NCBI GenBank assembly: GCA_030068145.1
Contig: JAPJBO010000044.1
Location: forward strand, 372,001-436,000
Direction: 5' to 3'
Source of the DNA: Diplonema papillatum
Lineage: Eukaryota > Euglenozoa > Diplonemea > Diplonemida > Diplonemidae
DNA length: 64,000 bases
Shown: positions 1,779 to 64,000 of the stretch, in pieces
How the letters are laid out: each line of letters opens with the position of its first letter
How positions within the stretch are numbered: position 1 is the first letter of the stretch
The notes under the pieces: generated by a model
Told to the model about the DNA's origin: nothing
What the model saw: only the letters and a program-made list of their open reading frames with translations
Database searches by the model: none
Position numbers and translations under genes: made by a program

Positions 1779-1904
1779 CCTACCCCCAACTACTCTACGG
1801 CACCAGAAAGTCCAAAAAGACCATGGTAAAGAAAGTAGAAAGAGAAAAAAGAAGTTGTCGACAACGAAAGAAAGAAAAGAACAGAAAATAAGACTCTGCA
1901 TCCG

Positions 1905-3573: not shown

Positions 3574-3608
3574 CTAGTAAACAAAGATTTTATCCTCATT
3601 CATGGCAG

Positions 3609-15770: not shown

Positions 15771-15773
15771 ATA

Positions 15774-30343: not shown

Positions 30344-30346
30344 CCC

Positions 30347-35292: not shown

Positions 35293-35299
35293 CCAAAAT

Positions 35300-45456: not shown

Positions 45457-48400
45457 ATGGAGGAACCGCGGACGGAGGGCGACGTGGAGTACCTGCAGCG
45501 GAAGGGCGTGTCGGCCCTGTTCGACGGTATGATCCGTGACATCGCCGATGCCCAGCCGGCCCGGCCGGGCCCGTGGATTCTCCGCTTTTTGAAGGCGCGG
45601 CAGACTGCGCCGCCGCCCGACACACTCTGGGTCCAGGCTGGCCCCCTGAAGTCGCTGGAGGGCGTCTACACTCTCGCGGGAGCCGCGAACGGCGTCCCGT
45701 TTTGGAAGTCGAGGGGGAACCGGCTGTACACGAACTCGCGCGGGGCGTGGGTGATCGCGGAGAGCCAGCGGAAAATGGCGGAGGATACCGGCGTGGTGTT
45801 CTCGGACGCGCCGCACGACGGGGCGGAGTCCCCGGTCGACGTGAAAATTTGGCGCCACCAGGACTCGAGGAGGACCGTCGCCGCGGTTGTCGTCACTGCG
45901 GCGGCGCCGCCGCCGCGGAGCCCGAGTGCTCCGTTTTCGGCTCCCACCGCGGCTTCGTCGCAGATGGTGTCCGCCCTGTCCGGCACGCGCGCCGGGTCGC
46001 CGCCTGCGGCGGCCGCCCAGCCGTCGCTTTCGAGGCACGGGTCCTCGTCGTTGTACACGGCCCGCAAACCCCCCCAGGACTTCAACTCGTCCCACGGGTC
46101 TGCCGCGGGCAGCAGGTCGCCCTTGCGGTCGAGCTTCACGTGGTCGCCAACCAACGCGCTCTCGGATCCGAACGCCAGCGCGAGAAGCGTTCGCGACACG
46201 TCGCCACCGTCCCGCCGCCGGCACTCCGGAACGCCGCAGGTGAAGTCCCCGTCGTCCGCTCGCTCCTTGAAGTCGGCTGCCCGGTCCGGAAACCTGCCTT
46301 CCTCCGAAGAACCCGACCCGCAGCAGCACACGGCCTCCGACGAAGGCTTCGGCCGGGCGCGCACTTCGGCGCAGAAGTGGAAGGAGGAGGCGGCGTCGAG
46401 CACGATGAAATCCGTCACCCTCGAAGCGGAGCTCGACCTCGCGAAGTCAGCGAACGCGAAGCTCGCCGCCCGCGCCCGGCGGAAGAGCTCGGAGGCGGCG
46501 ACCCTCCAGACAGAAATCACCCGCCTCCAAGGCCGCCTGACCGACCAAGTCCTGCTCCAGCAGCACGCCGCCGCCGACGACGCCCTCGAAAACGCGACGT
46601 TGCACTCCGCAACGTCGTCCCCAGCCTTCCACCCGGCCGCCAGCTCCGTGGCGCGGCTGCAAGGCGAGCTGTTCGCCGCCCAGGAAGAAGTCGACCTCCT
46701 CACCGTGAGCCGGAAGAAGGACCAGACCGAGCTCGAAACCCTCCGAGACGCCCTGCACGGGTTCCAAGCCGAAAAGCACCGGCTCGAAGCCGACTTGGAC
46801 GCGTCGCGCGGCCGGTGCGCGCTGGTGCAGCAGACCGTGGGCTCGTTGAAGTCGGAGCTCGCGGACAGCCTCCGCCAGTGCGAGGGCTTGCAGGCCGAAA
46901 AAGACCGCGAAGCGACCAGGGCGGACCGCCGGACGCAGCACGTCGACGAAGAGTGCGAGGCGCTCCGCCGGAAGGTCTCCGCCACCGCGGCGGAGGCGCA
47001 GGAGAAGCTGCGGGAGAAGGAGCGCGAGCTGCAGAGCCAGAAAGCGGAGGTCGAGTACCTCAAGCAGGCCGTCGCCCGCAACGAGCGGGCGACCGAAACC
47101 ATGCAGCAGCGCATGGTCGCCGAGCGCGACGAGCAGAAGGAGTACGTCGACGTCATGCGCGCGAAGCTTTCGAAGGCGACCGTCGAGAACACCTCTTTAA
47201 AAGCCGATCTCGACCAAGCCGTGGCGTCCATGGACGCCTTCAGAACCCGCACCCGCGAGGAAATCGAAGAAAACTACCGGCAGCTCAACCAGCTCCCCGA
47301 TCTGCGCAGGAAGCTCGAGACCAAGGAGGCAGAACTCGCGCAATCCCTCAAACGCCTTTCGACCTTCGAAGACAAGCTCGCAGACGCAACCCTCGCGGCC
47401 GACCAGCACAAAGCAGAAGCCGCGTCCGAGAAGAGGAGAAGCGAACAGCTTGCAGAAACCGTTGAAGAACTGCGGGGCCTGGCGGAGACCAAGTCGCGGG
47501 CGATCGAGCGGCTGGAGCAAACCCTGGCGGAAGTGCAAGAGTCGGCGGACAGGCGGGACCGGGAGGCGTCAGCCGGGATCTCGAAGCTCGAGACGGAGAT
47601 CCTCGACCTCGCGGCAAGCATCGGCGAAAAGGACGCGGAAACCGAGCAGAACGAGCTCGGCGCCGCCCGGCGTGCCGCGGAGTTGGAGCAGGCGGCGCAG
47701 AACTTGGCCGCCGAGGTCGCGTCGAAGACGCGCGCGTGCAGCCAGCTCTCCCGGGAGCTCGACGGCTTGCGGGAGTCGATGGTCGACCGCGACGCTCGGT
47801 ACCGGCAGGACCACGCGGAGCTCGTCCGGCTCCTCTCGGAGAAGGACGCCGAGGTCGCGCGGCTGCGCCGGGATAACGGCGCCCTCCAGGCCGCCTCCTC
47901 GGCCGCCGCCCCCACCGAAGGAACCCGGGCGCTCGAGGCCGAACTCGAACGGGAGCGGCTGCTCACGGCGGACCTGACGAAGCGGCTCGAAGCCGCTGAG
48001 AGGGCCTCGGAGTCTCCGGAAGAACCGGCGCCGGAGATGGAAGAGCTGGCGGAGATGGTCTCGGTTCTCGAAGACGAGCTGCGCGAGGTGCGCATCGAGA
48101 GAGACGCGCTCCGGGGGGCCGTCGGCAAGTTTAAGGCCGACCGAACTGCGGATTCCGCCGCCTTCCGACAGCGGGAAGCGCTGCTGAAGGCGTCGAACCA
48201 CACCCTGCAGGCGGAGCTCGACGAGAGCACCTCCGACTGGCGCGCCGCGTCGGGGTTGCAAGACGACATCGTCGAACTCCTCCAAAACGCGTCGGCTTCG
48301 GAATCCGCGCTCTCCCGCGAGCAGGCAGCCGAGAACCGCCTTTTGACCGAGCGGGTACTGCAGCTGGAACTCCTCGCGGAAGCCGACAGCCCCCCGGGCC

Positions 48401-51400
48401 CGAAGTCCGGCCTGCAAGCGTTGCACAACGCGCGGAACGCGGCAACGGAAGAGGCCCCTTCGCCGCCGGGCCTGCAAGCGTTGCAGAACGCTTCGAAGAC
48501 GGACGAAGCGAGCGACCTCGGAGCCAGGGTCGACGAATTGCAGGAGGCGCTCGCGCGAGAACGCGGGCTTTCCGCTGAAAAGGACCGTGAAATCGCCACT
48601 CTCCAGCAACGGGTGGACGAAATAGAAGCGAACAGTGCATTCGACCGCCGCGAACTGGAAGAGAAGTTTGAACAAGAACGTGGCCTCTCCGTTGAAAAGG
48701 ATCGCCAAATTGCCACTCTCCAGCAACAGTTGGACGAGATCGAAGCAAGCAGTCCGGATAGTGCATTCGACCGCCGCGAACTGGAAGAGAAGCTTGAACA
48801 AGAGCGCAGTCTCTCCGTTGAAAAGGACGGTCAAATCGCCACCCTCCAGCAACGGCTCGGCGAGATCGAAGAACGCCTCGAGCTGGAAGGTCAGCACCCA
48901 CAGCAGGAGAGTCAAACGACCACCCACCAGCTGCACGTCGAAGGAGCCGGGTTGCAAGCATTGAGCCGCTCGTCGGACGCAGCCGCGGACCAGGCGGGGA
49001 CGACCACAGCGACGCCAGGACTGCAAGCTTTGAAGAACTCAGTCGAAGCTGCGGCAGACGAGACGAGCGACCGGCTCGACGACGAAACGCGCCGGGAATT
49101 GGGAGAATTGCGCAGGCAGCTCGAGCGTGAGCGCGGGGAGGCAGCGGAGAAGGACGAACGGATCGCGGGGCTGACCGCAGCCGCGGAGCGCGCGAACGAG
49201 GAGGCCGAGGGACTGCGGGCGAAGGCGCGGGCGAACGACGAGCGAGCGGAGCGTTTGAAGAAGGAGCTGACCGACGGCCTCCAGCGGGCCTCCTCCGAGA
49301 TCGACCGGCTGATGGAGCAGCTGCAGGACCTCAGCGTTCGGAACGAGGAACTCCGCAGCGAGCTGGAGCAGGAGCGCGAGTCCAGGAGGGAGAGCCTGTT
49401 CGGCTCCCCCGAGCCGTCGCCCAGAAGCTCGCAGCTGACCGGCGCGCTCGACCGGGGCGCCAGCAGCGTGCCGACCGGCGAAGAGGCCGCGAGGCGGAGC
49501 CTGCTCTCGGTGCCCGCCAGCGACCCGAGGGCGCTGTCCGCCAGCAACTTCAGGAGCACGAGCAGCGGCAGCAGTTCGATGAAGAGCGCCCAAGACGAGC
49601 CCGACGACCCGGCTGCCCTCCTCAGCCTTGTCCAGCAGCTCACGTCGCGCAACGCGGCGCTCCAGCAAGCAATCTCAGACACGACCGCCAGCGCCGCAGA
49701 ACGTGACGAAGCCGTCGCAAAATGCCTCCTCCTCGAAACCGAACTCCAGCAACACCGCCACGAAACACACGCAGAGCTCGTCGAAGCCCGAGAGACCATC
49801 GAGCGTCTACGAGCTGAGCTTGACTCCCAGCAAACCGTTCTCACCTCTGTCCAAGGCGAAGTCACCCACCTCGGCGATGCCTTAGCTGCAAAAGAAGAAG
49901 AAATGAACGAGCTTCGCAAAGCGAACGAAGCCCACGAGCTACGCCAAGGGCTTCAAGGCCCCCACGCAGACGGTGCCAGTGCGGATAGCAGGGGTAGTAG
50001 CGTGGGGAAGGGGAACCCGGTAGAGGATGAGGTGGCGCGGTTGAAACGCGAGCTGGAGGCCGCGCGCGAAGAGAGGCAGAAGCTGGTGAAGGAGGTGGCG
50101 GAGCTCTCCGCGGGGACGGACGCGCTGGAAGGCGAGGCCAAGCGCCTGGCCGCCGAAGTCGAGAAGGTGACTGCCGACAAGGAAGAACTCGACGCGTTGT
50201 TAAAGGATATGGAGCTCATCCAAGCCGAAGTCGCCACCCTCACTGAGGCGCTCGCCGACTCCAAATCACACACCTCGGCCCTGCAGAATGACCTGCTCAC
50301 TGCGAACACTCGCATACAACAACTTGAAGGCTCACTTCACGAGAAGCCAGACACGATACAGCTGGAACAGCGTCTGTTGAAATCGGAAGCTTGCGTAGAA
50401 GTGCTCGTGCAGGAGAAGGCCGCGTTGCTCGGAAAAGTGGCGGACCTGCAGTCGGAGCTGCAGCTGGCGGGCGGCATCATGACCGACAAAGACGCGGTGA
50501 TCTCCGGCATGCAGCGGCTGCTGGACCAGCTGCGGGGCGAAACCCGCGAGCTGCAGCGGGCCGTCGACGACGGCAACGAAACCGCGGACGCCCTGTCGTC
50601 CGCTCTGTCCGACCTGGCCCAAGCCAACGCTGCAACGGAGACGCTCGCCGCCGAGCTGGCTCAGCGTGTGGCCGATGACGAAGCTCGCGAAACAGTGCTC
50701 ATCGAAGAGCGCGACACCCTCGCTATTCACGTCCGGGAGCTGGAGGAGATGCAAAAACAGAACTCAAGCGCTCCGGCACCAGGTGCCGGTGAAGCCGAAG
50801 AGTTGACTGCATTGCGGGAGAAGGAAGCGCAGCTGAACCGCGAGCTGCAGAGAGCCGTCGACGAAGGCAACGAAACCGCGGACACCCTGTCGTCCGCTCT
50901 GTCGAACCTGGCCCAAGCCAACGCTGCAACGGAGACGCTCGCCGCCGGGCTGGCTCAGCGTGTGGCCGATGACGAAGCTCGCGAAACAGTGCTCATCGAA
51001 GAGCGCGACACCCTCGCCAGTCGCGTCCGGGAGCTCGAGGAGACGCAGAGGCAGAACGCAGGCGCTCCGGTACCACCAGGTGCAGGCGAAGCCGAAGAGT
51101 TGGCTGCGTTGCGGGAGAAGGAAGCGCAGCTGCACCGCGAGCTGCAGAGAGCCGTCGATGAAGGCAACGAAACCACGGACGCCCTGTCGTCCGCTCTGTC
51201 GAACCTCGCCCAAGCGAACACTGCGACGGAGACGCTCGCCGCTGAACTCGCTCAGCGAGTGGCCGACGACGAAGCACGTGAAATGGCGCTCATCGAAGAG
51301 CGCGACACCCTCGCCGATCGCATCCGGGAGCTCGAGGAGATTCAGAGGCAGCACTCCAGCGCTCCGGACGACAAGGATAGGGGAACGCCGGCACCCAGTG

Positions 51401-54400
51401 CCGGCGAAGCCGAGGAGTTGGCTGCGTTGCGGGAGAAGGAAACGAAGCTGAACCGCGAGCTGACGCTGGAGCGGTTCGCCCGCGAGAGCATGCAAACGAC
51501 GCTGCAGGCGGAGCAAGAAACCGCGGACAACCTGCGCTTAGCGCTTTCGCGACTCGAGTACCAGCTCAGCGAGGACGGCCGCGCGCGCGACAGGGACGTG
51601 CAGCGGAGCCTCGAAGCAGAACTCGCCGCAACCCAGCAACAACTCGCGGAGGCAAACGCCCGGGCCGCCACAGCGACCATCCCCGTCGAATCCCCCACGA
51701 TCTCGTTTGAAAACGCGGAGCTGTCAGATCAGAAGTCGGCCGAACCGCCGCTCGTAGGCGACTTGCTGGCAGAGCGGCGGATCCTGCAGAAAGAAGTGGA
51801 GGATCTGTCCAAAAGCGTGCGCGAGCGGGACGTCGAGAATTCGGACATGAAGCAGGTGGTCGGGCTGCTGAGCACGCAGCTGCGCAAGGTGACGACCGAA
51901 AACCTCCAGAACGACGAAAAGCGGCAGGCGGAGCTCGAGTCCCTCGCCGGCCAGTTCTCCGAGCTGCAAGCCCGGTACGACGAGGAAACGTCGCTGCGCT
52001 CGGAGGAAGCTCTCGAGAGGGACCGGCTGGCCACGGACTTGGGAGAGCTCCGCAGCCAGTACGACAAGGCCGAGCGCTGGACCGCCCTCGAGCCCACGGC
52101 GTCCGACTACCACCCGCGGGGAGAAGAGGAGAACGACGGGGACCACCTCGAGGCCGGGCTCCGGCAGGTGCGGGTGCCCTCGGAAAACTACCTGCGCAGC
52201 CCCCGCATGCGGGGCGCCGGCGCGGGCTTCGACGGGGCCGAGCACACAGAGGCGGGCGAGCTGCGCAAGCAGCTGGCGGCCGCGACCGCCGCGAACGAGG
52301 CGCTCAGGCTCGAGCTGGACCTGCTGAAAGAAGCGGCCCCCGCCGCGCTGCCCGCAGCGGTTCCAAACGAGTTGCTCTCGGCGCGTGCAGAGCTTGACGA
52401 CTTGCGGGCCGCGAACGCCGCGCTGGAGGAAATAGCGGGGCAGCTCCGGGGGCAGGTCGAAGCGAAGACGGCTGAAGTGCTCAAGGGTGCGGAGGTCATC
52501 GGGCAGCTGCTGGAAGGCAACGAAGTCACCGCGGCGGCTCAGGAAGAGTACGGCAGGTCCCTCGGTGAAGCCGAGGTCAAGTTGCACGCGGCTCAAGAAG
52601 AGCTCCACCGCGCCGAAGCCGAGCTGCGAGAACGCGGCTCCGAGCTGGTATCCCGCGCTGCCGACGAACTGGAGGACAGGACAACCCTCGAGGCGCAGGT
52701 CCGCCTCGCAAGCGACAGAGCAAGGCAAGCGGAAGCCAAGCTTCCCGCGATGCCGCAATCCGACTCGGTCGACCAACTCGAGCAGACCAGCTCGTCGCAC
52801 GTCCTCCCCCGGATGTCGCCCGAGGACTTCGCGGACAGGGACCACCTCTCCGCGGCGCTCATCGAAAAAAACGCCGCGGGTCTCGAGTCGAACCGAGAAG
52901 GAAACGACGAAGAGACCACCAAATTGCGCGATGACCTCCGCGTGAAGGAGGAGGCGATGAAGGAGCTGGCGAGCGACCTCGCCGCAGAGCAGAAGAAGTG
53001 CGTCGACCTCGAACGGCTGGCCGCGGTCCTCCACGAGCAGCTGGCCGACGTCGAGGCGAGCTGCGGCGGCGACGCGGGCGGCAAGACGGACGCCGAGCGC
53101 GACCAGGCGCTGGGCGGAGGCGAGCGGGAGGAGCTGCTCACCAAAATCGCGTCGCTGCAGCAGGAGCTGGCCTGCGTCGAAGCCGACTGCGCGCGGGCGA
53201 CGCGGACGATCCACGTGCTGGTGGAGGCGCTGGACGAGAACCTCAACGAGCCGGGCGGCGGCAGCGACGCGGCGGACCAGCCCGAACCCTTGCACCACAC
53301 GGCTTCCGAGGAAATGGAGTGGCAGCACGGCTTTATCCATTTGGAGCAGCCTTCCGAGATTGTCGCGAACGAAGAGATGCTCGCGCGAGTCGACAGCACC
53401 GACCGAGCCGTCTCGGACAGTGCAGACTTCTCAGCGAGGAGGTCGGTGCTGCTGGATGCGGCGGACTCGGCGTTCGACCGATCCGACAGTGCAGACATCC
53501 GGTCTGACGTGATGATGCAGTCCCGCAGCAACCTGCGGGGGGCGGAGGGCATCGAGCGGGGCCGGTCGGACAGCGTTGACCACGCGTGCCCGGACAGCCT
53601 CGGGCTCGCGCCCGCCGCCGACGACTCCGACGACAAGTCGGACAGCGCGAACCTGCCGGGGTCCGCGTCGTGCGGCGACTTCGGCGGCGAGGACATCGAA
53701 ATCCCGGGCTGCCGGTTCGTCGACATCGAGATGGGCGCCGGGGACGCGTACGCGAACGTTTTGCCGCACGCGGCGGACATGATCAACAACCTCCTCTACG
53801 TGCTCGACGCGGCGGAAACGGACCGGAATTCACTCGCCGCCGAGCTGGCATCGGCGTTCGACCAGGTGCGCGTGCTGGAATCCATCGTCGCGAAGGTTGA
53901 AAGCGAGGCGGCCCAGCTGCAGGCGAGTATCCTCGAGATGCAAGAAGCGTACAACCTCGACGACGCCGACGACGCCCTGTACGCCGCCATCAAGGACAAC
54001 CTGCACGCGAAGCTGCCGCCGGTTCGCGTTCGACCGAGCTCGAGCTCCCTACGAACCAGCAGCAAGGAGAAGGACAACCAGTCCGACCACGACTCCGCGG
54101 GGGGGCCCTCCCTCGCCTCCGGCGACGCGGACACCACGCAAAAGCACTTCCAAAGCCACGCGACGCTGCCAGCGGCCGTCCCGCTGTCGCACCCTGTCAA
54201 CATCGTGTCGAGCATCACCGGGCCGTCGTCCGCCACATCGCAAGACGCTGTCCAGCGATACCTGCGGCGCATCCACTCGGCGGCCCATCAGGATGGCGAC
54301 CTCGCGAGTGACGGCCCGTGGTCCGCGCTGGGTGTCGACACGCCTCCAGAGGTCGACGAAAGCTATTCGATGGAAGACCAAGTAAGCGCGTTGCGCCGGC

Positions 54401-57400
54401 GGGTGCAGAGGAGGGACGCGGCGATCCGGGCGCTCGAGGAAGTCGTCCACCGAGTCACCGGCGCGGCTGAAGCCGCGAAGGAGCGGTTCTCCGACGCGAG
54501 CGAAGAAACCCAAGTGCCTACGGCCGCCGCGGAAGCCCGGCGCGAGGCCCGCGACACCATCTCGCGGCTGCTGAAGGAAGCCGAAGAAGCCGCGGCGAGG
54601 GAATCGGCGCTGGCGCGCGAGCTGCAAACCGCGCGCGCCAGCGCGACCGGCGCCGAGAAACCCGCGGAAGAAGCCGACGACGCGGATCTCGACGCCGCCG
54701 TCGCCTACCACCGCACCGACTCCGTCCGGGCCGTCGCGGCCGAAACCTCGGCCGCCAAGGCCCTCGTCGAAGCCATGGAAGAAGGGCTGAAAGAGTACAA
54801 GCAGCAGTTCGATGAGCTCGAAGTGAGCCACCACGAGCTGTCGCACGAAAACGCTCGCCTTCAGCAAGCCCTCGACGCCGCCCGCGCCGAGCTCCAGGAC
54901 TCGCACGAAGCTATTCAAACAGGGATGAAAGAGCACAAGCAACAGTTCGACGAGTTGGAACGAGGCCACCAAGAGCTGTCCACCGAAAACGTCGCCCTCC
55001 AACAAGATCTCGATGCCGTGCGCGCGGAGCTCCAGGGCTCGCACGAAGCCATGGATGCAGGGCTGAAAAAGCACAAGCAACAGGTCGACGAGTTGGAAAG
55101 GAGCTACCAAGAGCTGTCCAAACGAACCGTCGCTTTGCAAGAAGCCCTCGATGCCGCGCAAAGTGCCAAATCCGGCGCACTCGACGCCGCAGATCGCGGG
55201 AGAGGCCTTCAGCCCACAAGCGGAGCGGACGAAGTACCGGCGTCTGCAGCCGATGACGACGGTGGTGAACCGGTTGCCAGAGGGCTGCCCATTCAGACCG
55301 ACCCGGCTTCGTCGGACGAAGGGCAGACGGGCACGCCGGAAGGTGCAGAGCGTGGTCTGTCCGGTATATCAGTTGCGGCGCCGGAAAGAGCGCTTGCTGG
55401 TCCTGGCGAGGTTGGGTCGTCTGTTGAGGGTCCTCAAGAAGCGGAGGCGCAGGAAGCTGTCCACAGTCCATTCAGGGAAGACTTCCTCGAGTTCGAATCC
55501 CCAGCGGACGCCCAACCACCGAATCCGAGCGAGGCTCCGATCCAGAAGCAAGTTTCCGAGGATCAGCACCCGCCCGCCGAGCAAGTTGTCGACTTCCAGT
55601 CAGCGCAGGGCCCCAACGACCTTCAGGTACAGGCGAAGAAGTCTCTCTGCAGCCCGCTTACAGAGCCCCCAGTTGACTTCCAATCAGCGGTGGACGGTGG
55701 GGCCCCCAGTGAAGTCCCGGCTCATGCGGTGGCACCGATCAACAGCCCGTTTGCGGATGGCTTTCTTGAGTTCGAATCCGGGAGGGAAGGAGACCGCCCC
55801 CGCGGGGCCTGGCGTCAAGCACCGCGAGACGTCGACAGCCCGCTTGTTGCCTTCCAAACGGCGCAAGGTCCCCACGAGTTCGCGCGATCCGTCGACGAAC
55901 ACCCCCTCGACTTCCAATCGGCAGTGGAAGGCGGGGGCCCGAGCGAGGCTGCGACCGGTGAGCTTCCGGCTGGTGATGGAGCAGGGCGCCGTCAGGCGCG
56001 GCACAGCGTAGGCAGCCACCTCATTGACTTCCAATCGGCAGTCGCAACTCCGCCAAGTCTCGAAAGCCCTTTGACGGTGAACAACGAAGGCGGGTGGTCT
56101 GAAAACCCGTACGCCGCGCTGGCCCAGGCTAACGAAGCCCTGCAAGCGGACCTCGACCGATCTCATTCGGATAACCGAGCACTCCGCCATCAACTGGAAG
56201 AGCTGCTTGCTTCTGGGAAAGGCACGGGGCTGCAAGCGTTGAACAACGCAGCAAGCGCGCCGCGAGACGCGACCGCGGGCCCCGGACTGCAAGTTTTGAA
56301 CAACGCAGCGCAGCCGGCGGCGGACGCCGAGCGGATTTGCGACGAGCTCCGCGCGCAGCTCGAACGGGAACGCGAGAGCTGCGCCGAAAAGGATCGGCAG
56401 ATCGCGTCTCTGCAGCGAACTGACGAAGCCACCGCCGGCGGGAAACCTGAGACGGCGGGCGGGACCGCCGAGCCCCGTTCACCGGACAGAACATTAGAGA
56501 AAGCTGGGCTGCAAGTGTTGTACGCAGCGAGCGCTGCGATGTCCCCTGGACTGCGAGTGTTACGCGACGCATCGTCGCGCACATCGACGGATGAGACTGT
56601 CGAGCTTCAGACAGCCCTTGAGGAATTGCGAGAGCAATTGAAGCGAGAACGCGAAGTTTCTTCTGAAAAGGATATTCGGCTTGCGGATCTCCAGAGCCAG
56701 GCTTACGAAGCTGGCGCCCGTTCACCGGACAGAACAGTAGAGAAAGCTGGGTTGCAAGTGTTGTACGCAGCGAGCGCTGCGATGTCCCCTGGACTGCGAG
56801 TGTTACGCGACGCATCGTCGCGCACATCGACGGATGAGACTGTCGAGCTTCAGTCAGCGCTTGAGGAATTGCGAGAGCAGTTGAAGCGAGAACGTGAAAT
56901 TTCTTCTGAAAAGGACATTCGGCTTGCAGATCTTCAGCGCCACGCTGACGAGGCTGGAGCCCAGTCATCAGACGGAACCGTAGAGAAAGCTGGATTGCAA
57001 GTGTTATACGCAGCGAGAGCTGCGATGTCCCCTGGGCTGCAAGTGTTACGCGACGCATCGCGCACATCGACGGATGAGACTGTCGAGCTTCAGTCAGCGC
57101 TTGAGGAATTGCGAGAGCAGTTGAAGCGAGAACGCGAAGTTTCTTCTGAAAAGGACATTCGGCTTGCAGATCTTCAGCGCCACGCTGACGAGGCTGGAGC
57201 CCAGTCATCAGACGGAACCGTAGAGAAAGCTGGATTGCAAGTGTTATACGCAGCGAGAGCTGCGATGTCCCCTGGGCTACAAGTGTTACGTGACGCATCG
57301 CGCACATCGACGGATGAGACTGTCGAGCTTCAGTCAGCGCTTGAGGAATTGCGAGAGCAAGTGAAGCGAGAACGTGAAGTTTCTTTTGAAAAAGACGTCC

Positions 57401-60400
57401 GGCTCGCGGATCTTCAGCGCCAAGCTGACGAGGCCGCCTCTCAGTCATCAGACAGAACCGCAGAGAAAGCGGGGCTGCAAGTGTTGAACGCAGTCACCAA
57501 CGACACTGGGGCTCCCGGATTGCAGGCATTAAGCAACGCGTTGCACCACACGTCAGCGGACGAAACTGGCGCAATCCGATCAGCGCTTGAGAAGTTGCAA
57601 GGACAGCTGGAAAGAGAACGGGAAGTCACTGCTGGCAAGGATACTGAAATTGCGGAGCTGAAGCAAAGATTCGGCGATGGAGTTGAGTCGGCCGCATTGC
57701 CGGAGAAGGCTGGACTCCAAGCCTTGAACGCAGTTGCAGACGAGACCAATGCGCCCGGCATACTTGCATTGAACAACGTGTTGGATACAGCAGCAGGCGA
57801 GGTAGGCGAGATCAGACTGGAGCTCGATAGCATTCGCGAGCAACTCGAACAGGAATGTGCGCACTCTGGTGAGAAGGATCGTCAGATCGCAGCTCTTCAA
57901 CGAATAGCTGACGGGGCTGAGCCGCAAAAATCGGACAAGGAGGCCGGGGTGCAAGTGTCGAACCAATTGAGTGAGACAGAGGCGTCGGGACTGCAAGCTC
58001 TGCTGAACTCGGCGGCAGACGAGAGTGTCGAGCTACGATCAGCGCTTGAAGAAACGCGGGCGCAACTGGCTCGGGAACGTGAAATCTCTTCTGGAAAAGA
58101 TGTTCATATTGCAGCTCTGCAGCAGAAGGTCGACGCTGTCGAGCTGTCTGCGCCACCGGGCAACGGGGGACTGGAAGCCTTGAACGCAGTGAAAGGCAAG
58201 GCTGACGCGCCCGGGCTCCTTGCGTTAAACAACGCGCTCATCGCAACGGCGGATGAGACTCGCAACCACAGCTTAGAACTCGATGCACTGCGCGAGCAAC
58301 TTGAGCGTGAACGTGAATTATCTTCCGGGAAGGATCGTCAGATCGCAGATCTTCAAGAACGAGTGCAGGTGGTTGAGCTGCCAGGTTCGGATAGGGCAGG
58401 GCTGCAAGCTTTGCACAATGCAGCAAAGACAAACGGGACACCAACCAGCGACCTGCACGAGGAGTGGAGGAGTGCTGAGGACCGGCCTTTAGAAAGCCCC
58501 GGTATGGACCTCGTCAGTTACCGATCGGCAATGGATGACAACACTCGAACGGCACTACTGCCGAACTCGAGCAAAGAGGAGCAAAAGCAGCAGGTGCAGG
58601 TCTTTGCGACACCGATGGCGGATTACATCGACACCCAGTCGGGAGCGGGGCAGGCGCGCAGCATGCCGAAGCTGTCTCTGCAGGCGAACGGCGAGCGTGA
58701 CCGGGAGGAAATCGACCGGCAAGACGCGATGGAACCGCAGGACGAGTTCCGAACGCCTTTGAACCCTCCGGGCTGGGACTTCCCTCCGCCTGCTCGGTCG
58801 GAGCATCACGAAGAGCTGTTGTCCGCCACGCAAGGGTCGAAGCGAGACAGCGAAGACGGGAGCGCGACTCCGGGACCCAACGGGAAGTGCGCGTCGCTGT
58901 CCGGGGACGCCGAATCCTTGCTGGTCGAGCGGGACGAAGCGCTGGCCTACGTGTGCGAACTGGAAGAGGCACTGCTCCGGTCCGAAGCCACGGCTCTCGA
59001 AGCCGTCGAAGCCATGTACGCCTTGCAGAACAGGCTCGAGGACTGTGCTGTTGAAGACGCGTGCATGTCAATGAAGACCCTTGCCAACGCGTACGAGGCA
59101 AAAGGCCGCGCGACCGGGTTGGAGTCAGAAGTTTCACGCCTGCAGGCTCTCGTCGCAGACGGGCCCGATTCGGCGTCAAAGGATGCCGAGGACCAGACGA
59201 AGGTCGTCCTAGCGCTGATGGACGAAATCGACGAGCTTCGTGCGGGAACGGAGGGCTGGAAAAAAATGTTCGGCGACTTAGAACAGTCCGCGATGTCCGC
59301 CGTCGACGAACTGCTTCTGTACCAGAGCACCGTCGAAGCCGTGGCGGAGCAAGAAGCCGAGTACTGCGCCCAGCTGGTGGCGGCCGCCAGACCGCGCGAA
59401 CGGCAAGCGAACGGGGACGACGACGACCACGAACGGTCTCCGGCGATGCCCCTCGCCCTCGCGGAAGACCTCGACTTCGAAGCCACGCAGCTGGCCCGGA
59501 TCGACAGCAACCTCGACGTGGGCAGCCGCGACCAGCAGCAGCCGTCGCCCGCCGTGCCTTGCCAAGTCACGGCTGAAATAGATTTCGACGCGACGACTAT
59601 GTCCAGGCGGGAGCATGCAGTGCCCGCGAAGCCGTCGCACCAGCAGCAGCAGCGTCGCCACCTCGAAGCCGCTCCGAGCGGCGACTGCCAGGAAAGCCAG
59701 CAAGACCAAGTGCCGTCGCCAGCCGTTCCTTTAGACCTGGCGGACGACCTCGACGATGCGGCGCAGCTCTCGTCGAGAGACCTCAGAGCCGCCGACTCCC
59801 GAGGAACGGGCGGGCCCGACCTGGAGGATCGCCCGCAGAGCCCCTCGCCGTCGATGCCGCTGGGGATCGCGGACGAGCTGGACTTTTCTGCGACCCACTT
59901 GTCCCGGGCGCCGCACGCCGCCGAAGCCGCGTCGGAGGCCGGGTATTCAACCGACGACGCTGACCCACCGGCGCCGGTGTCGTTGCCGGCGCCGCGCGCC
60001 GGCGACGTCGCCGAGTACTTGCGGCTGCTGGCGGACATGCAGGACCAGTTCGTGACCCTCGAGGCGCACACGCAAACCGAGCGCGCGGCGAGCGCTGCGC
60101 GCATCGCCAGCCTCACCGACGAGGTCGACAGGCTCACCGGCCTCCTCGCCGGCGGGACCCCCGAACCCGAAGCCCTGACGGCCCGCTCCCTCGACAACGC
60201 GAGCCTCGCCGGCAGCGCGGAATCGGAGGAGGAACCTGTCACCGAAGAGGACCTTCGCGCCGCGCTGGCGAAGTCGCGGGTGAAGCGTGGGATGCTGGCC
60301 GCGAAGCTCGAGCACCTGAGCACGGAGCACTGCCGGGTCCTCGAAGAGACCTGCACGCAACGAGACGACCTCATGAAGCAGGTCGAGGAGGCCTTCGGCG

Positions 60401-63400
60401 AAATCGACGGCGGTGCCTCGGCCGAGCTGTCGGCCGCCCAGCACGACCTCGCCACCGCCAGCGCCGAGTGCGAGCGACTCAGCGAAGCCCTCCAAGCAGA
60501 ACAAGCCACGTCCGCGCGGCTGGCGGCGTCGGTGACCGCGGCGCAATCCGGCAACCCGGAAACGACGGTTGCCGGAGAACAGCTGCGGGCGCGTTGCGAC
60601 GAGCTGGAGCGGGAGCTGGCGGCCCACGCCAACTGCGCCGCCAGCCTCGAGACGCTGCAGGAGGAGCTGATGGCCGCGCACGCGGACCGGGCGCGGCTGA
60701 CCGCCGAACTCGACACGGCGGAGGCCAACGCCGAGATGCTGGTCGCGAAGTGCGACGCGCTCGAAGCGACGCTGGTTTCGCAAGAAAACACCATCCGCGA
60801 CGTCACCGACCGGCTGAAGGCCATGTCGGACGAAGACCATGAACCGGGCTTCGCGGTGCAAGTCGCCGAACTCGTCGCGAATCTGACCCTAAAAGACGAA
60901 GAAGCACGTGCCCTCCGGCACCGGTTGCGGAAGCTCGAGTTGAAGGCGAAGGTGAAGCGGGACCAGCAGCGCGAGGCGAACAAAGCGACGCCGAGCACCG
61001 GGGCGTTGACACTCGAGCTTAGGCAAGTCCGGGGACAGCTCGACGCGAACGAAGACGAGGCCGACGAAATGAGGGAGCTGCTGGTCGACCGGCTGTCGCC
61101 CGTCATGCACTTCGACGAGGGCGTGCCTGTCGCCCCCTCCGCCTCCGACGACCACCTGCGGCACCGCCGGCACACCGTCCCCATCCGGCCCCGGCTGACG
61201 CTGCCATACCTCGAGAAGGAGAAGGAGAAGGAAAAAGAGGCGGAGCCCCCGCGCGACACGGTAGTGCGCGTGGTGTCGCCGCACCCCGACACCGACCCTC
61301 CCAGCTTCCCCGGGTCGGTCGGCGGGAAAGAACTCGAAAGCACGATCCAATCTGTCGACAGAGTAACCGCCGACGTCGTGCAAATGCAGGACACGGTAGC
61401 GTACGTCTTGGCGTTGACGAAGGAGGAGGTCGACGGGCTGAACGCTGAACGAGATGAGTTGCAGGCGGAAATCACCGGGTTGCAAAAGCTGGTCGAGGAA
61501 CAAAGTGCAGAAATCGAGAGTCTACGGGAGCAAGACACGATGCCGGGCATGCAACGGCAGGAGACCGCACCCCTGGACACGGGCCTCGAAAAGAAGGACA
61601 GCCAACGGGAAGAAGAGTTGGAGAAGTTGCGCACGGAGCGCGATTGGCTCGCGGAAGTGGCGGGCGGCCTGGTTTCGCGCTTGACGGACGGCGTCATCGG
61701 CATGCAGGAAGACGTCATGGTGCTGGCAAGCGCTGGTCTCACGCCCCCAAGCTCGGTGCGTTTGTCGCACGAGGTGACGCGCACCGCCGACACCCCCATA
61801 CAGCAGCAGCAGCAGCAGCACCGGCAGCAGCCCGACTTCAGCGCCGCGCGGCAGAAAGGCGGCGACCTGCACAACATCCGTGAGGAGATCAACTCCCTCT
61901 TCATGAACAGCCAAAACCGCAACCCGTTCCAGAACACGCTCTCCAACTCGCAGGCGGACGCGAGCTGCGCCAGCAACGTCCCGCTGGCGGCGGCGAGCAC
62001 GGAACCGGCGAACAACCAGTCGACGCCGGCCGTGTTTTCAACCCCGCAAACGTCCGCGGCCGGCCGCTCACCCGTGGACAGGGCGGAGGATGTCGACGAG
62101 CTGCACGCGTCGGTCCGCGAAAGGGACCGGCTGCTGTCCGAAGCGAACGCGACGCTCGACTCCCTCAAAGCCGACAAGGGCGACCTGCTCTCGGAACTCG
62201 AACTCGCCGCCGCGGAAATGGAACGCCTGCGAACCACGCAGTCGAAGGACGACCTAGAGCAGAGCAGCAAGCAGCTCGCCACCGAGACAGCCGCGCTCCG
62301 GGCAGAGGTAGCACGCCTTGAAGCGGACAACGCCGCACTGGTGGACAGCTTGGGTGAACAGGAGGATCGTGTGGCCAGCTTGCTGCTCGACGTGCGCCGG
62401 TATTCGGACCTGGCGGCGGAGGCCGCGTCCCGGGCGTCGGTGCGCCGCGCGAGCGCCACCAGCGACGGCGACGCCGCCGAAAAGCGACGCGAGCTCGAGG
62501 CCCACGTGCGCGACCTGCAAGAGGCCCTCTCCCGCGCCGAGATCAGCAGCCACAAGTCGACCGACGCCCTGCAAAGGACCATCGCCGGCCTTGAACGCGA
62601 ACTGTCCGCAGCACGCGAGCAGGTCGACCGCCTCAAAGCCGACCTGGTGGAGCTCGTCAGCCCGACGGCGGCGCCTTTCCCCCGTACGCCGCCGCCGTCG
62701 AGCGACGAAGAAGGCCCCGGGCGGCTGATCCTGAAGCTGCGCGACGACGTCGACCGGACGGCCGCCGAAAAGGCGCGCCTCGCGGAGGAGGCGGCGGAGG
62801 CCCTGCGGGCGGCGGACGCCGCCCAGGACCGGCTCCGCGGCGACAACGCCAGCCTCGCGGCGGAGCTCGAGCGCATCGACCGCGCGCGGGCGGACGAGCG
62901 GCGCGAGCTCAGCGAGGCGGCGGACCAGATCGAATTCTTCGTGGCGCGGCTCGCGGAGGCCGAAGCCGCCGTCGAAGGCGGCGAGGCCCTGCAGGCCGAG
63001 GTCCGCCGCCTCCGCGAAGAAAACGAAAGCCTCCACGCACGGAGGGGCGATACAGCTGCGACTGACCAACCCGACGCTTCAGAGGTCCAGAACAACCTCG
63101 AAGCCGAAGTGAAGCGGCTAGCTGATGAGAACAGGCGTTTGACAGCTGCTGCCGACCAACCCGATGCTTTGGAGATCCGGAACAACTTGGAAGCCGAAGT
63201 GAATCGACTAGCTGCCGAGGTCGCAGCCTCCGTGCGGGAAAAAGAGGCGTTGATTGAGCGGTTGGAGGACGCACTGCTCGAGCTGAGCGAAACGAAGATC
63301 GTCGCGCGGGACGCCCGGGCCGCCGCGGTCCACAACCAGGACGCGCTGTGGGTGGCGGAGCTGAAGGCGCACAGGCTCGGGGACGTCGCGAAGGAGCTGC

Positions 63401-64000
63401 AGCGCGACCTGCGCCTGGAGCGGGCGACCGTCGAAAAGCTGTCCGCCGACCGATCCGACCTGTCCCGCGCCCTCGGCACCCAGCACGCCCGCGGCAACCA
63501 GCTCGAGGCGGACCTTGCTGCAGCTGCAGCCGGAGTCGCGCCGGACCTGCAGGTCCTCCATCCGCCTCCGAGCCCTCGCGAGCTCGAAGGCGAAATTGAA
63601 GCTGCGAAAACCAAAGACGACGACCCGCATGCGCAAGGAGGCGCCGCGGCCGTGGGTGATTCGAGCCTGCGGCAGGCCGGGGCCGACCTGGAGCGGGCTC
63701 ACGCGAAGATCGCCGAACTCGAAGCGGAAAGAGACGGCCTCGAGGAGGCCCACCGCGAGTTGTCGGAACGCGCCCGGCAAGAAGAAGCGGCCTGGAAAGA
63801 GCGCTTGCAGCGCGCCGAATCGGCCGTGGCGGAGCTGCAAGGTGAACTCGACGACACGCGTGGTCACATGCGGGAGCTGACAGCGAAGACGGAGTCGCAA
63901 GCCCGCCAGCTTGTCACCAGCGGCGAGGTGCTGCAGCAGCTCGAAGCCGAGCTTGAAGCAGCGAACGCTTCAAACTTAGCGGCGCGAGAGAATACCGGGC
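45457..64000 (+). CDS. Giant coiled-coil protein with DPY-30/RIIa-like N-terminus (3' incomplete)
   Basis: One frame is open from ATG 45457 to the right edge, at least 6,181 codons without an intron. An in-frame TGA at 45358 and no ATG between fix the start. Residues 9-47 (EYLQRKGVSALFDGMIRDIA..PGPWILRFLKARQ) match the DPY-30/RIIa dimerisation-docking helix pair. Residues about 66-136 form a small domain (LEGVYTLAGAANGVPFWKSR, RLYTNSRGAWVIAES, SPVDVKIW) of unknown function. A Ser/Pro/Ala linker reaches about residue 300, then heptad coiled coil dominates. Internal repeats: GLQxL-containing modules (985-1195 and 3590-4332), 98-99-residue repeats (1739-1995), Ser-Asp runs (2645-2735), 46-residue repeats (3110-3248), DFQSA motifs (3342-3542 and near 4353), and four ADxLDFxATxLSR motifs (4664-4827). 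A short polyGln lies near 5449. Inference: an elongated cytoskeletal or flagellar scaffold. The C-terminus is outside the window. Confidence 0.95.
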   Translation, partial: MEEPRTEGDVEYLQRKGVSALFDGMIRDIADAQPARPGPWILRFLKARQTAPPPDTLWVQAGPLKSLEGVYTLAGAANGVPFWKSRGNRLYTNSRGAWVIAESQRKMAEDTGVVFSDAPHDGAESPVDVKIWRHQDSRRTVAAVVVTAAAPPPRSPSAPFSAPTAASSQMVSALSGTRAGSPPAAAAQPSLSRHGSSSLYTARKPPQDFNSSHGSAAGSRSPLRSSFTWSPTNALSDPNASARSVRDTSPPSRRRHSGTPQVKSPSSARSLKSAARSGNLPSSEEPDPQQHTASDEGFGRARTSAQKWKEEAASSTMKSVTLEAELDLAKSANAKLAARARRKSSEAATLQTEITRLQGRLTDQVLLQQHAAADDALENATLHSATSSPAFHPAASSVARLQGELFAAQEEVDLLTVSRKKDQTELETLRDALHGFQAEKHRLEADLDASRGRCALVQQTVGSLKSELADSLRQCEGLQAEKDREATRADRRTQHVDEECEALRRKVSATAAEAQEKLREKERELQSQKAEVEYLKQAVARNERATETMQQRMVAERDEQKEYVDVMRAKLSKATVENTSLKADLDQAVASMDAFRTRTREEIEENYRQLNQLPDLRRKLETKEAELAQSLKRLSTFEDKLADATLAADQHKAEAASEKRRSEQLAETVEELRGLAETKSRAIERLEQTLAEVQESADRRDREASAGISKLETEILDLAASIGEKDAETEQNELGAARRAAELEQAAQNLAAEVASKTRACSQLSRELDGLRESMVDRDARYRQDHAELVRLLSEKDAEVARLRRDNGALQAASSAAAPTEGTRALEAELERERLLTADLTKRLEAAERASESPEEPAPEMEELAEMVSVLEDELREVRIERDALRGAVGKFKADRTADSAAFRQREALLKASNHTLQAELDESTSDWRAASGLQDDIVELLQNASASESALSREQAAENRLLTERVLQLELLAEADSPPGPKSGLQALHNARNAATEEAPSPPGLQALQNASKTDEASDLGARVDELQEALARERGLSAEKDREIATLQQRVDEIEANSAFDRRELEEKFEQERGLSVEKDRQIATLQQQLDEIEASSPDSAFDRRELEEKLEQERSLSVEKDGQIATLQQRLGEIEERLELEGQHPQQESQTTTHQLHVEGAGLQALSRSSDAAADQAGTTTATPGLQALKNSVEAAADETSDRLDDETRRELGELRRQLERERGEAAEKDERIAGLTAAAERANEEAEGLRAKARANDERAERLKKELTDGLQRASSEIDRLMEQLQDLSVRNEELRSELEQERESRRESLFGSPEPSPRSSQLTGALDRGASSVPTGEEAARRSLLSVPASDPRALSASNFRSTSSGSSSMKSAQDEPDDPAALLSLVQQLTSRNAALQQAISDTTASAAERDEAVAKCLLLETELQQHRHETHAELVEARETIERLRAELDSQQTVLTSVQGEVTHLGDALAAKEEEMNELRKANEAHELRQGLQGPHADGASADSRGSSVGKGNPVEDEVARLKRELEAAREERQKLVKEVAELSAGTDALEGEAKRLAAEVEKVTADKEELDALLKDMELIQAEVATLTEALADSKSHTSALQNDLLTANTRIQQLEGSLHEKPDTIQLEQRLLKSEACVEVLVQEKAALLGKVADLQSELQLAGGIMTDKDAVISGMQRLLDQLRGETRELQRAVDDGNETADALSSALSDLAQANAATETLAAELAQRVADDEARETVLIEERDTLAIHVRELEEMQKQNSSAPAPGAGEAEELTALREKEAQLNRELQRAVDEGNETADTLSSALSNLAQANAATETLAAGLAQRVADDEARETVLIEERDTLASRVRELEETQRQNAGAPVPPGAGEAEELAALREKEAQLHRELQRAVDEGNETTDALSSALSNLAQANTATETLAAELAQRVADDEAREMALIEERDTLADRIRELEEIQRQHSSAPDDKDRGTPAPSAGEAEELAALREKETKLNRELTLERFARESMQTTLQAEQETADNLRLALSRLEYQLSEDGRARDRDVQRSLEAELAATQQQLAEANARAATATIPVESPTISFENAELSDQKSAEPPLVGDLLAERRILQKEVEDLSKSVRERDVENSDMKQVVGLLSTQLRKVTTENLQNDEKRQAELESLAGQFSELQARYDEETSLRSEEALERDRLATDLGELRSQYDKAERWTALEPTASDYHPRGEEENDGDHLEAGLRQVRVPSENYLRSPRMRGAGAGFDGAEHTEAGELRKQLAAATAANEALRLELDLLKEAAPAALPAAVPNELLSARAELDDLRAANAALEEIAGQLRGQVEAKTAEVLKGAEVIGQLLEGNEVTAAAQEEYGRSLGEAEVKLHAAQEELHRAEAELRERGSELVSRAADELEDRTTLEAQVRLASDRARQAEAKLPAMPQSDSVDQLEQTSSSHVLPRMSPEDFADRDHLSAALIEKNAAGLESNREGNDEETTKLRDDLRVKEEAMKELASDLAAEQKKCVDLERLAAVLHEQLADVEASCGGDAGGKTDAERDQALGGGEREELLTKIASLQQELACVEADCARATRTIHVLVEALDENLNEPGGGSDAADQPEPLHHTASEEMEWQHGFIHLEQPSEIVANEEMLARVDSTDRAVSDSADFSARRSVLLDAADSAFDRSDSADIRSDVMMQSRSNLRGAEGIERGRSDSVDHACPDSLGLAPAADDSDDKSDSANLPGSASCGDFGGEDIEIPGCRFVDIEMGAGDAYANVLPHAADMINNLLYVLDAAETDRNSLAAELASAFDQVRVLESIVAKVESEAAQLQASILEMQEAYNLDDADDALYAAIKDNLHAKLPPVRVRPSSSSLRTSSKEKDNQSDHDSAGGPSLASGDADTTQKHFQSHATLPAAVPLSHPVNIVSSITGPSSATSQDAVQRYLRRIHSAAHQDGDLASDGPWSALGVDTPPEVDESYSMEDQVSALRRRVQRRDAAIRALEEVVHRVTGAAEAAKERFSDASEETQVPTAAAEARREARDTISRLLKEAEEAAARESALARELQTARASATGAEKPAEEADDADLDAAVAYHRTDSVRAVAAETSAAKALVEAMEEGLKEYKQQFDELEVSHHELSHENARLQQALDAARAELQDSHEAIQTGMKEHKQQFDELERGHQELSTENVALQQDLDAVRAELQGSHEAMDAGLKKHKQQVDELERSYQELSKRTVALQEALDAAQSAKSGALDAADRGRGLQPTSGADEVPASAADDDGGEPVARGLPIQTDPASSDEGQTGTPEGAERGLSGISVAAPERALAGPGEVGSSVEGPQEAEAQEAVHSPFREDFLEFESPADAQPPNPSEAPIQKQVSEDQHPPAEQVVDFQSAQGPNDLQVQAKKSLCSPLTEPPVDFQSAVDGGAPSEVPAHAVAPINSPFADGFLEFESGREGDRPRGAWRQAPRDVDSPLVAFQTAQGPHEFARSVDEHPLDFQSAVEGGGPSEAATGELPAGDGAGRRQARHSVGSHLIDFQSAVATPPSLESPLTVNNEGGWSENPYAALAQANEALQADLDRSHSDNRALRHQLEELLASGKGTGLQALNNAASAPRDATAGPGLQVLNNAAQPAADAERICDELRAQLERERESCAEKDRQIASLQRTDEATAGGKPETAGGTAEPRSPDRTLEKAGLQVLYAASAAMSPGLRVLRDASSRTSTDETVELQTALEELREQLKREREVSSEKDIRLADLQSQAYEAGARSPDRTVEKAGLQVLYAASAAMSPGLRVLRDASSRTSTDETVELQSALEELREQLKREREISSEKDIRLADLQRHADEAGAQSSDGTVEKAGLQVLYAARAAMSPGLQVLRDASRTSTDETVELQSALEELREQLKREREVSSEKDIRLADLQRHADEAGAQSSDGTVEKAGLQVLYAARAAMSPGLQVLRDASRTSTDETVELQSALEELREQVKREREVSFEKDVRLADLQRQADEAASQSSDRTAEKAGLQVLNAVTNDTGAPGLQALSNALHHTSADETGAIRSALEKLQGQLEREREVTAGKDTEIAELKQRFGDGVESAALPEKAGLQALNAVADETNAPGILALNNVLDTAAGEVGEIRLELDSIREQLEQECAHSGEKDRQIAALQRIADGAEPQKSDKEAGVQVSNQLSETEASGLQALLNSAADESVELRSALEETRAQLAREREISSGKDVHIAALQQKVDAVELSAPPGNGGLEALNAVKGKADAPGLLALNNALIATADETRNHSLELDALREQLERERELSSGKDRQIADLQERVQVVELPGSDRAGLQALHNAAKTNGTPTSDLHEEWRSAEDRPLESPGMDLVSYRSAMDDNTRTALLPNSSKEEQKQQVQVFATPMADYIDTQSGAGQARSMPKLSLQANGERDREEIDRQDAMEPQDEFRTPLNPPGWDFPPPARSEHHEELLSATQGSKRDSEDGSATPGPNGKCASLSGDAESLLVERDEALAYVCELEEALLRSEATALEAVEAMYALQNRLEDCAVEDACMSMKTLANAYEAKGRATGLESEVSRLQALVADGPDSASKDAEDQTKVVLALMDEIDELRAGTEGWKKMFGDLEQSAMSAVDELLLYQSTVEAVAEQEAEYCAQLVAAARPRERQANGDDDDHERSPAMPLALAEDLDFEATQLARIDSNLDVGSRDQQQPSPAVPCQVTAEIDFDATTMSRREHAVPAKPSHQQQQRRHLEAAPSGDCQESQQDQVPSPAVPLDLADDLDDAAQLSSRDLRAADSRGTGGPDLEDRPQSPSPSMPLGIADELDFSATHLSRAPHAAEAASEAGYSTDDADPPAPVSLPAPRAGDVAEYLRLLADMQDQFVTLEAHTQTERAASAARIASLTDEVDRLTGLLAGGTPEPEALTARSLDNASLAGSAESEEEPVTEEDLRAALAKSRVKRGMLAAKLEHLSTEHCRVLEETCTQRDDLMKQVEEAFGEIDGGASAELSAAQHDLATASAECERLSEALQAEQATSARLAASVTAAQSGNPETTVAGEQLRARCDELERELAAHANCAASLETLQEELMAAHADRARLTAELDTAEANAEMLVAKCDALEATLVSQENTIRDVTDRLKAMSDEDHEPGFAVQVAELVANLTLKDEEARALRHRLRKLELKAKVKRDQQREANKATPSTGALTLELRQVRGQLDANEDEADEMRELLVDRLSPVMHFDEGVPVAPSASDDHLRHRRHTVPIRPRLTLPYLEKEKEKEKEAEPPRDTVVRVVSPHPDTDPPSFPGSVGGKELESTIQSVDRVTADVVQMQDTVAYVLALTKEEVDGLNAERDELQAEITGLQKLVEEQSAEIESLREQDTMPGMQRQETAPLDTGLEKKDSQREEELEKLRTERDWLAEVAGGLVSRLTDGVIGMQEDVMVLASAGLTPPSSVRLSHEVTRTADTPIQQQQQQHRQQPDFSAARQKGGDLHNIREEINSLFMNSQNRNPFQNTLSNSQADASCASNVPLAAASTEPANNQSTPAVFSTPQTSAAGRSPVDRAEDVDELHASVRERDRLLSEANATLDSLKADKGDLLSELELAAAEMERLRTTQSKDDLEQSSKQLATETAALRAEVARLEADNAALVDSLGEQEDRVASLLLDVRRYSDLAAEAASRASVRRASATSDGDAAEKRRELEAHVRDLQEALSRAEISSHKSTDALQRTIAGLERELSAAREQVDRLKADLVELVSPTAAPFPRTPPPSSDEEGPGRLILKLRDDVDRTAAEKARLAEEAAEALRAADAAQDRLRGDNASLAAELERIDRARADERRELSEAADQIEFFVARLAEAEAAVEGGEALQAEVRRLREENESLHARRGDTAATDQPDASEVQNNLEAEVKRLADENRRLTAAADQPDALEIRNNLEAEVNRLAAEVAASVREKEALIERLEDALLELSETKIVARDARAAAVHNQDALWVAELKAHRLGDVAKELQRDLRLERATVEKLSADRSDLSRALGTQHARGNQLEADLAAAAAGVAPDLQVLHPPPSPRELEGEIEAAKTKDDDPHAQGGAAAVGDSSLRQAGADLERAHAKIAELEAERDGLEEAHRELSERARQEEAAWKERLQRAESAVAELQGELDDTRGHMRELTAKTESQARQLVTSGEVLQQLEAELEAANASNLAARENTG
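48403..49040 (+). repeat. GLQAL modules in the giant gene, first cluster
   Basis: Four GLQAL motifs (with HNARN, QNASK, SRSSD, KNSVE after them) alternate with coiled-coil units of the form LExERxLSxEKDRxIATLQQ, three of which are near-identical in protein (48537-48870). The same two-part module reappears at 56226-58450. Confidence 0.85.
50641..51440 (+). repeat. 98-99-codon tandem repeats in the giant gene
   Basis: AQRVADDEARE recurs with starts at 50671, 50965 and 51262 (294 and 297 bp apart), each followed by IEERDTLAxxxRELEExQ, a Gly/Pro/Ala break (APxPGAGEAEEL), ALREKEAQLxREL and GNETxDxLSSALSNLAQAN. High DNA identity points to recent unequal exchange. Confidence 0.9.
54784..55197 (+). 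repeat. 46-codon tandem repeats in the giant gene
   Basis: Three units 138 bp apart, at 54784, 54922 and 55060: GxKxxKQQxDELExxxxELS, then LQxxLDAxxAELQxSHEA. The 46-residue period is not a whole number of heptads and implies a hinge or phase shift in each unit. Confidence 0.9.
55590..56060 (+). repeat. DFQSA short-motif region in the giant gene
   Basis: (V/L/I)DFQSA followed by a Gly-rich turn occurs at 55591, 55675, 55909 and 56026, a variant (VAFQTAQGPH) near 55846, and SYRSAMDD near 58515. Two DFLEFES or GFLEFES motifs lie among them (55480-55780). The surrounding sequence is Pro/Glu/Ser-rich and not coiled coil. Confidence 0.85.
56226..58450 (+). repeat. 80-81-codon GLQxL/coiled-coil modules, second cluster
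   Basis: Near-identical units start near 56501, 56744, 56987, 57227 and 57467 (243, 243, 240, 240 bp). Each has GLQVLYAAxAAMSPGLQVLR, DETVELQSALEELREQLKRE and EKDIRLADLQRxADEAG. More diverged units continue to 58450 (GLQALNAVAD, GLLALNNALI, GLQALHNAAK). Confidence 0.92.
59446..59935 (+). repeat. Four ADxLDFxATxLSR motifs in the giant gene
   Basis: MPLALAEDLDFEATQLAR (59446), VPCQVTAEIDFDATTMSR (59552), VPLDLADDLDDAAQLSSR (59725) and MPLGIADELDFSATHLSR (59853), each preceded by a Ser-Pro-Ala or Ser-Pro-Ser motif in disordered sequence. Spacing varies while the motif stays, which is typical of a selected binding site. Confidence 0.88.

What the first reader, a model, noticed from the sequence alone, without database searches (positions are those of the whole stretch)
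45457..64000. Single exon of at least 18.5 kb encoding a giant coiled-coil protein
The frame is open for 6,181 codons to the window edge with no intron, while the other genes here are cut into short exons by repeat-filled introns. The mix of a docking helix pair, a small globular domain, long coiled coil, several tandem repeat families and disordered motif regions suggests a cytoskeletal or flagellar scaffold not obviously described.
Basis: partly seen in the sequence, partly recalled or inferred. Interest (0 to 1): 0.75.

Follow-up and report, generated by a model that had tools for sequence, protein, structure and literature searches.

The report
Giant coiled-coil protein with docking domain
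A single uninterrupted gene in an unidentified protist encodes at least 6,181 amino acids of mostly coiled-coil scaffold that starts with a small helical 'dimerisation and docking' domain, so it probably acts as a long cytoskeletal or flagellar tether; the type is known, this particular build I did not find described.

Summary
One + frame is open from ATG 45457 (in-frame stop at 45358) to the window edge: 6,181 codons, at least 670 kDa. It is coding: every 600-nt block favours this frame, simulated DNA of the same composition reaches at most 862 open codons, and four tandem-repeat families within it have periods divisible by three and dN/dS 0.22-0.48. No GTRAGT/GTATGT donor or long pyrimidine tract occurs inside, so one exon is the best reading; RNA is still needed. 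The 3' end lies outside the window.

The 'docking helix pair' is, by sequence, a dimerisation/docking (D/D, RIIa/DPY30-type) domain, residues about 8-48, closest to PKA RI-alpha and Chlamydomonas FAP385. The 'small globular domain' (about 56-148) matches nothing searched. The rest is discontinuous acidic coiled coil, local repeats and repeated short motifs.

Most likely: a long dimeric tether whose D/D domain clasps an amphipathic helix on a partner, plausibly flagellar/basal-body. Location is inferred. Giant repetitive coiled-coil cytoskeletal proteins are a known kind (FAZ10, p197, NUP-1); this fits none by repeat type. A diplonemid-like host, where about 59% of genes lack introns, would make 'single exon' ordinary; the host is not established.

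The parts
45457..63999 (+). open reading frame, first 6,181 codons of a giant coiled-coil protein, no stop before the window edge
45365..45413 (+). pyrimidine tract followed by AG just upstream of the ATG: possible (trans- or cis-) splice acceptor; unproven
   Evidence: sequence; in-frame stop at 45358
45478..45600 (+). residues 8-48: D/D (RIIa/DPY30-type) dimerisation-docking domain, predicted helices 6-15, 18-32, 39-49
   Evidence: profile hit 22 bits, best of all windows and 3,000 shuffles; RI-alpha alignment 0/2000 shuffles; AF2 pLDDT 72; top PDB sequence match FAP385, E=1
45622..45900 (+). residues 56-148: probable small globular domain, W/Y/G-rich, no coiled coil, no family match
   Evidence: composition; no Pfam/PDB match; AF2 uninformative
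45904..46386 (+). residues 150-310: Ser/Pro/Ala-rich low-complexity linker
46393..63999 (+). residues 313-6181: discontinuous acidic coiled coil with disordered inserts
   Evidence: heptad periodicity z: mean 1.0, 24% of windows >2; Pfam hits are only sub-threshold coiled-coil models
48634..48871 (+). tandem 42-aa repeat (126 nt), 2 copies
48409..49146 (+). first cluster of GLQAL...EKD units, about 2,400 residues before the main cluster
50545..51432 (+). tandem ~99-aa coiled-coil repeat, 3 copies, dN/dS 0.28
53374..53601 (+). region of short SDSAD/SDSVD motifs
54769..55182 (+). tandem 46-aa repeat, 3 copies, dN/dS 0.48
55444..56046 (+). disorder-like stretch with repeated DFQSA / DFLEFES short motifs
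56227..58446 (+). main cluster of GLQ[AV]L...EKD units; six tandem ~80-aa copies from 56497, four of them near-identical (dN/dS 0.22)
59437..59946 (+). four copies of a SPAxPLxLAxDLDFxATxLSR-like short motif

Best explanation
A real, translated, probably single-exon protist gene for a giant (at least 670 kDa) acidic coiled-coil scaffold. Shown: open frame, purifying selection between repeat copies, a D/D-type N-terminal domain by sequence profile. Inferred: the D/D helices pair with a second copy (or another D/D protein), forming a four-helix bundle whose groove clasps an amphipathic helix on an anchor protein, as RIIa/DPY30 domains do in radial spokes and AKAP complexes. The two chains then run side by side as a long segmented coiled coil that spans a distance or builds a filament, while the repeated short motifs (GLQ[AV]L, DFQSA/FLEFES, PLxLAxDLDF) act as multivalent sites for partners. 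Expansion of tandem units lengthens the rod without breaking the frame. Many D/D proteins outside PKA and COMPASS are axonemal (own knowledge; several), so a flagellar, basal-body or associated cytoskeletal location is the best guess.
For: Open frame and its improbability; codon-usage frame consistency in 30/30 blocks; dN/dS 0.22-0.48 in four repeat families; no GTRAGT, GTATGT or pyrimidine run of 14+ within the ORF. D/D: a profile built from FAP385, AK8, NME5, RI-alpha, RII-alpha and DPY30 hits residues 11-46 at 22 bits, above every other window of the protein and all 3,000 shuffles; 0/2000 shuffles reach its score against RI-alpha; single-sequence AF2 gives three helices in the expected places, pLDDT 72. 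D/D domains dock axonemal proteins on amphipathic helices (PMC11779644). Coiled-coil periodicity. No transmembrane segment or clear NLS in the visible part. GLQ[AV]L occurs 17 times against 0.03 in shuffles.
Against: No Pfam RIIa/DPY30 hit, PDB match only E=1, and Foldseek returned nothing for the short model. Partner binding cannot be tested here. No homologue, transcript or localisation; the C-terminus, often decisive for targeting, is outside the window.
Confidence: 0.6

Rival explanations
1. Nucleoskeletal (lamina-like) protein such as trypanosome NUP-1: a giant coiled coil forming a network under the nuclear envelope.
For: NUP-1 is a >400 kDa, almost purely coiled-coil acidic protein with large internal repeats (PMC3313915).
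Against: NUP-1 has 17 near-perfect 144-aa repeats and a C-terminal NLS; here the repeats are 42, ~99, 46 and 80 aa and few, no clear NLS in the visible part, and no D/D domain is part of the described NUP-1 layout. The C-terminus is unseen.
Confidence: 0.1
2. Golgin-like or other membrane tether: long dimeric coiled coil anchored to a membrane by an unseen C-terminus.
For: Long discontinuous coiled coil with short repeated motifs; C-terminus outside the window.
Against: No transmembrane segment in 6,181 residues; a D/D domain is not a golgin feature (own knowledge).
Confidence: 0.12
3. The frame is real but is spliced or read from several transcripts, so the 6,181-codon protein does not exist as one chain.
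For: No RNA evidence here; a neighbouring gene has large introns; GC3 is lower at about 55.4-58.9 kb.
Against: Uniform frame in all blocks, no canonical donors or pyrimidine tracts, purifying selection in repeats also inside the low-GC3 segment.
Confidence: 0.12
4. Assembly artefact: separate genes or repeats mis-joined into one frame.
For: Near-identical tandem repeats can be mis-assembled in copy number.
Against: Copies differ by 10-36 bases from each other, the frame continues through unique sequence between arrays, and all joins keep frame.
Confidence: 0.04

Closest known systems
D/D (RIIa / DPY30-type) docking proteins: PKA RI-alpha, FAP385, AK8, NME5
   Same: Residues 8-48 share the Y-x-Q...A-L...I...P.RP pattern of RI-alpha and three predicted helices
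   Different: The ones listed are small or enzymatic proteins; none is the cap of a giant coiled coil
Trypanosoma brucei FAZ10
   Same: Giant ORF (13,005 bp), coiled-coil domains, internal repeats, no TM helices (PMC5358337)
   Different: 52 near-identical 35-aa repeats and an N-terminus with no recognisable motif; here no such repeat and a D/D domain
Trypanosoma brucei p197 (TAC)
   Same: Very large (880 kDa) extended coiled coil used as a tether from the basal body (PMC13108849)
   Different: About 35 spectrin-like repeats; no such array here
Trypanosoma brucei NUP-1
   Same: Acidic giant coiled coil with tandem repeats (PMC3313915)
   Different: 17 repeats of 144 aa, nuclear; neither seen here

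Membership tests
D/D (RIIa/DPY30-type) domain proteins | sequence matches a D/D profile | tested here: met
D/D (RIIa/DPY30-type) domain proteins | helix 0 + helix I + helix II in the RI-type order | tested here: met
   AF2 model helices 6-15, 18-32, 39-49, mean pLDDT 72, no alignment
D/D (RIIa/DPY30-type) domain proteins | structural match to solved D/D bundles | tested here: inconclusive
   Foldseek returned no matches for the 54-residue monomer
D/D (RIIa/DPY30-type) domain proteins | dimerises and binds an amphipathic helix | not testable with these tools
   needs biochemistry
FAZ10 | arrays of 35-aa repeats in two coiled-coil domains | tested here: not met
   repeat units are 42, ~99, 46 and 80 aa
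NUP-1 | central 144-aa repeats | tested here: not met
NUP-1 | C-terminal NLS | not testable with these tools
   3' end outside window; no clear NLS in the visible part
p197 | about 35 spectrin-like tandem repeats | tested here: not met
   no high-copy array; no spectrin Pfam hit

The most novel reading that the evidence does not exclude
A previously undescribed class of protist cytoskeletal ruler or tether in which a PKA-RI-like D/D clasp and an unclassified small globular domain cap a coiled coil of more than 0.6 MDa, docking on an AKAP-like helix at the flagellum or basal apparatus.
Probability: 0.25. Interest if true: 0.6.

Novelty: new variant of a known kind. Interest (0 to 1): 0.4.

Why it matters
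If right, it would join the docking chemistry used in axonemes and PKA anchoring to a very long coiled-coil tether in one chain, giving a testable handle (the partner helix) on how flagellates build and anchor large cytoskeletal structures. It would also be a case where repeat-copy number directly sets rod length.

Tried and rejected
Pfam on the whole ORF gave only sub-cut-off coiled-coil models (KASH_CCD, DUF4164, Sas-6_C_CC): rejected as compositional. PDB search with residues 1-152 gave lectins and antibodies at E>0.2: chance. AF2 of residues 1-152 failed (pLDDT 34), so the second domain has no fold assignment. Searches for relatives in viral and prokaryote contigs found none, as expected for a eukaryote; no whole genome is held, so 'no homologue' is not a claim I make. 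A first attempt at dN/dS without codon alignment was wrong because of indels and was replaced. Host: a diplonemid fits (GT-AG introns, intron and intergenic repeats, possible trans-splice acceptor) but other protists such as chromerids were not excluded. Rfam and ARAGORN found no RNA gene.

Full report
Observation. The + strand frame starting at ATG 45457 has no stop to the last full codon of the window (63999), 6,181 codons. The previous in-frame stop is TGA 45358 and no other in-frame ATG lies between. GC rises from about 0.50-0.57 in the immediate flank to 0.58-0.69 in the ORF, GC3 is 0.77. A frame this long is not compositional: log10 P is about -67 under independence, and 200 second-order Markov sequences reached at most 862 codons.

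Is it translated? Codon usage favours this frame over the five others in 30 of 30 blocks of 600 nt. Four tandem families have periods of 126, 297, 138 and 240 nt, all multiples of three. After codon-level alignment their copies show dN/dS of 0.37, 0.28, 0.48 and 0.22, with in-frame indels only. This is evidence that the protein, not just the DNA, is kept. It also covers the segment with reduced GC3 (55.4-58.9 kb), where one might suspect a non-coding insert.

Is it one exon? There is no GTRAGT or GTATGT and no pyrimidine run of 14 or more inside the ORF. By contrast a neighbouring gene on the same strand joins in phase across GT-AG introns of 2,932 and 805 bp (22113-22406, 25339-25822, 26628-27157), with dispersed repeats in the first intron. 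It need not be surprising: in Diplonema papillatum, whose introns also carry repeats and GT-AG ends, only about 41% of protein-coding genes have introns (PMC10161547). The host of this window is not established; no genome is held for it.

Anatomy. Residues 8-48 (core EYLQRKGVSALFDGMIRDIADAQPARPGPWILRFLK) are a D/D domain. The best PDB sequence match for residues 1-50 is the radial-spoke protein FAP385, E=1. A profile of eight D/D domains picks residues 11-46 above every other stretch of the giant protein and above 3,000 shuffles (22 bits, E=1.7e-5 in that database). AlphaFold2 without an alignment gives helices 6-15, 18-32, 39-49 with pLDDT 72, the order expected for RI-type D/D (own knowledge). 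Against: Pfam's own models do not fire and Foldseek finds nothing for the isolated monomer.

Residues about 56-148 look globular (lower charge, W/Y/G-rich, no heptads) but match no Pfam or PDB family and could not be modelled. Residues 150-310 are Ser/Pro/Ala-rich. From 313 to the edge the protein is acidic (net -483 for the whole visible chain), with heptad periodicity broken by Pro/Gly-rich inserts (24% of 49-residue windows have z>2). No transmembrane segment or clear NLS is visible.

Repeats and motifs. GLQ[AV]L occurs 17 times against 0.03 in shuffles, in two clusters (residues 985-1192 and 3591-4320), most followed by a coiled segment ending in an ..EKD..IA.LQ-like stretch. Six of these units stand in tandem, four nearly identical. 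Other motif groups are DFQSA/FLEFES (3342-3530), SPAxPLxLAxDLDF (4661-4830) and SDSAD (2436-2710). They sit in disorder-like stretches and read as multivalent docking motifs; that is inference.

Mechanism. D/D domains dimerise and their groove holds an amphipathic helix; in axonemes this is how AK8, AK7 and others dock on RSPH3 or CFAP91 (PMC11779644). I therefore propose a parallel homodimer (or heterodimer through D/D), N-termini clasping a partner helix, long segmented coiled coil as a tether or filament, short motifs recruiting further partners. The D/D assignment is supported by computation; dimerisation, partner and flagellar location are inferred.

Comparison. Giant repetitive coiled-coil proteins are known in flagellates: FAZ10 (13,005-bp ORF, 35-aa repeats; PMC5358337), p197 (880 kDa, spectrin-like repeats; PMC13108849), NUP-1 (144-aa repeats; PMC3313915). 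The repeat types that define these are absent here, so it is not filed under any of them. A D/D cap on such a rod was not found in the literature searched, though that search was limited and no eukaryote sequence database was available.

Verdict. Real, coding, very large; a new variant of a known kind. Interest is moderate: the size and open frame are not rare among flagellate scaffolds, but the D/D-capped layout is specific and testable.

Noticed in passing
window 22113-27157, probably starting upstream: A multi-exon + strand gene; last three exons join in phase through GT-AG introns (2,932 and 805 bp) and end at the stop codon at 27155. The first of these exons has a weak cold-shock-like match (CSDE1, E=0.18).
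   Followed up: partly
window 15750-16154 and 20059-20520: Exon-like frame with a CCCH zinc finger (PF00642, E=2e-8), and a poly-Gln-rich frame further on; possibly parts of RNA-binding protein genes.
   Followed up: partly
window 22750-22820: tRNA-like stretch with a B-box-like GGTTCGAACCCC, not called as a tRNA by ARAGORN; looks like a tRNA-derived SINE inside an intron.
   Followed up: no
window 1598-1787, 15356-15430, 24105-24205, 30169-30358, 35115-35304: Dispersed repeat family containing CTCAGGTTCCGCGCTGATG...GTGTCCGTGGCTTAA, scattered through introns and spacers.
   Followed up: no
window 28098-28377: Telomere-like AACCCGCAAACCC array of about 280 bp in the interior of the window.
   Followed up: no
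window 16260-18650: 28-bp CTCTTACTAATCACGTTCCCCCAAGCGA repeats flank a 204-bp tandem array (16865-18340) on both sides, with TAGCTAGCTA segments: looks like a repeat-bounded or mobile unit.
   Followed up: no
window 45341-45361: Perfect short inverted repeat (TTCAGTTC..GAACTGAA) directly before the pyrimidine tract upstream of the giant ORF.
   Followed up: no
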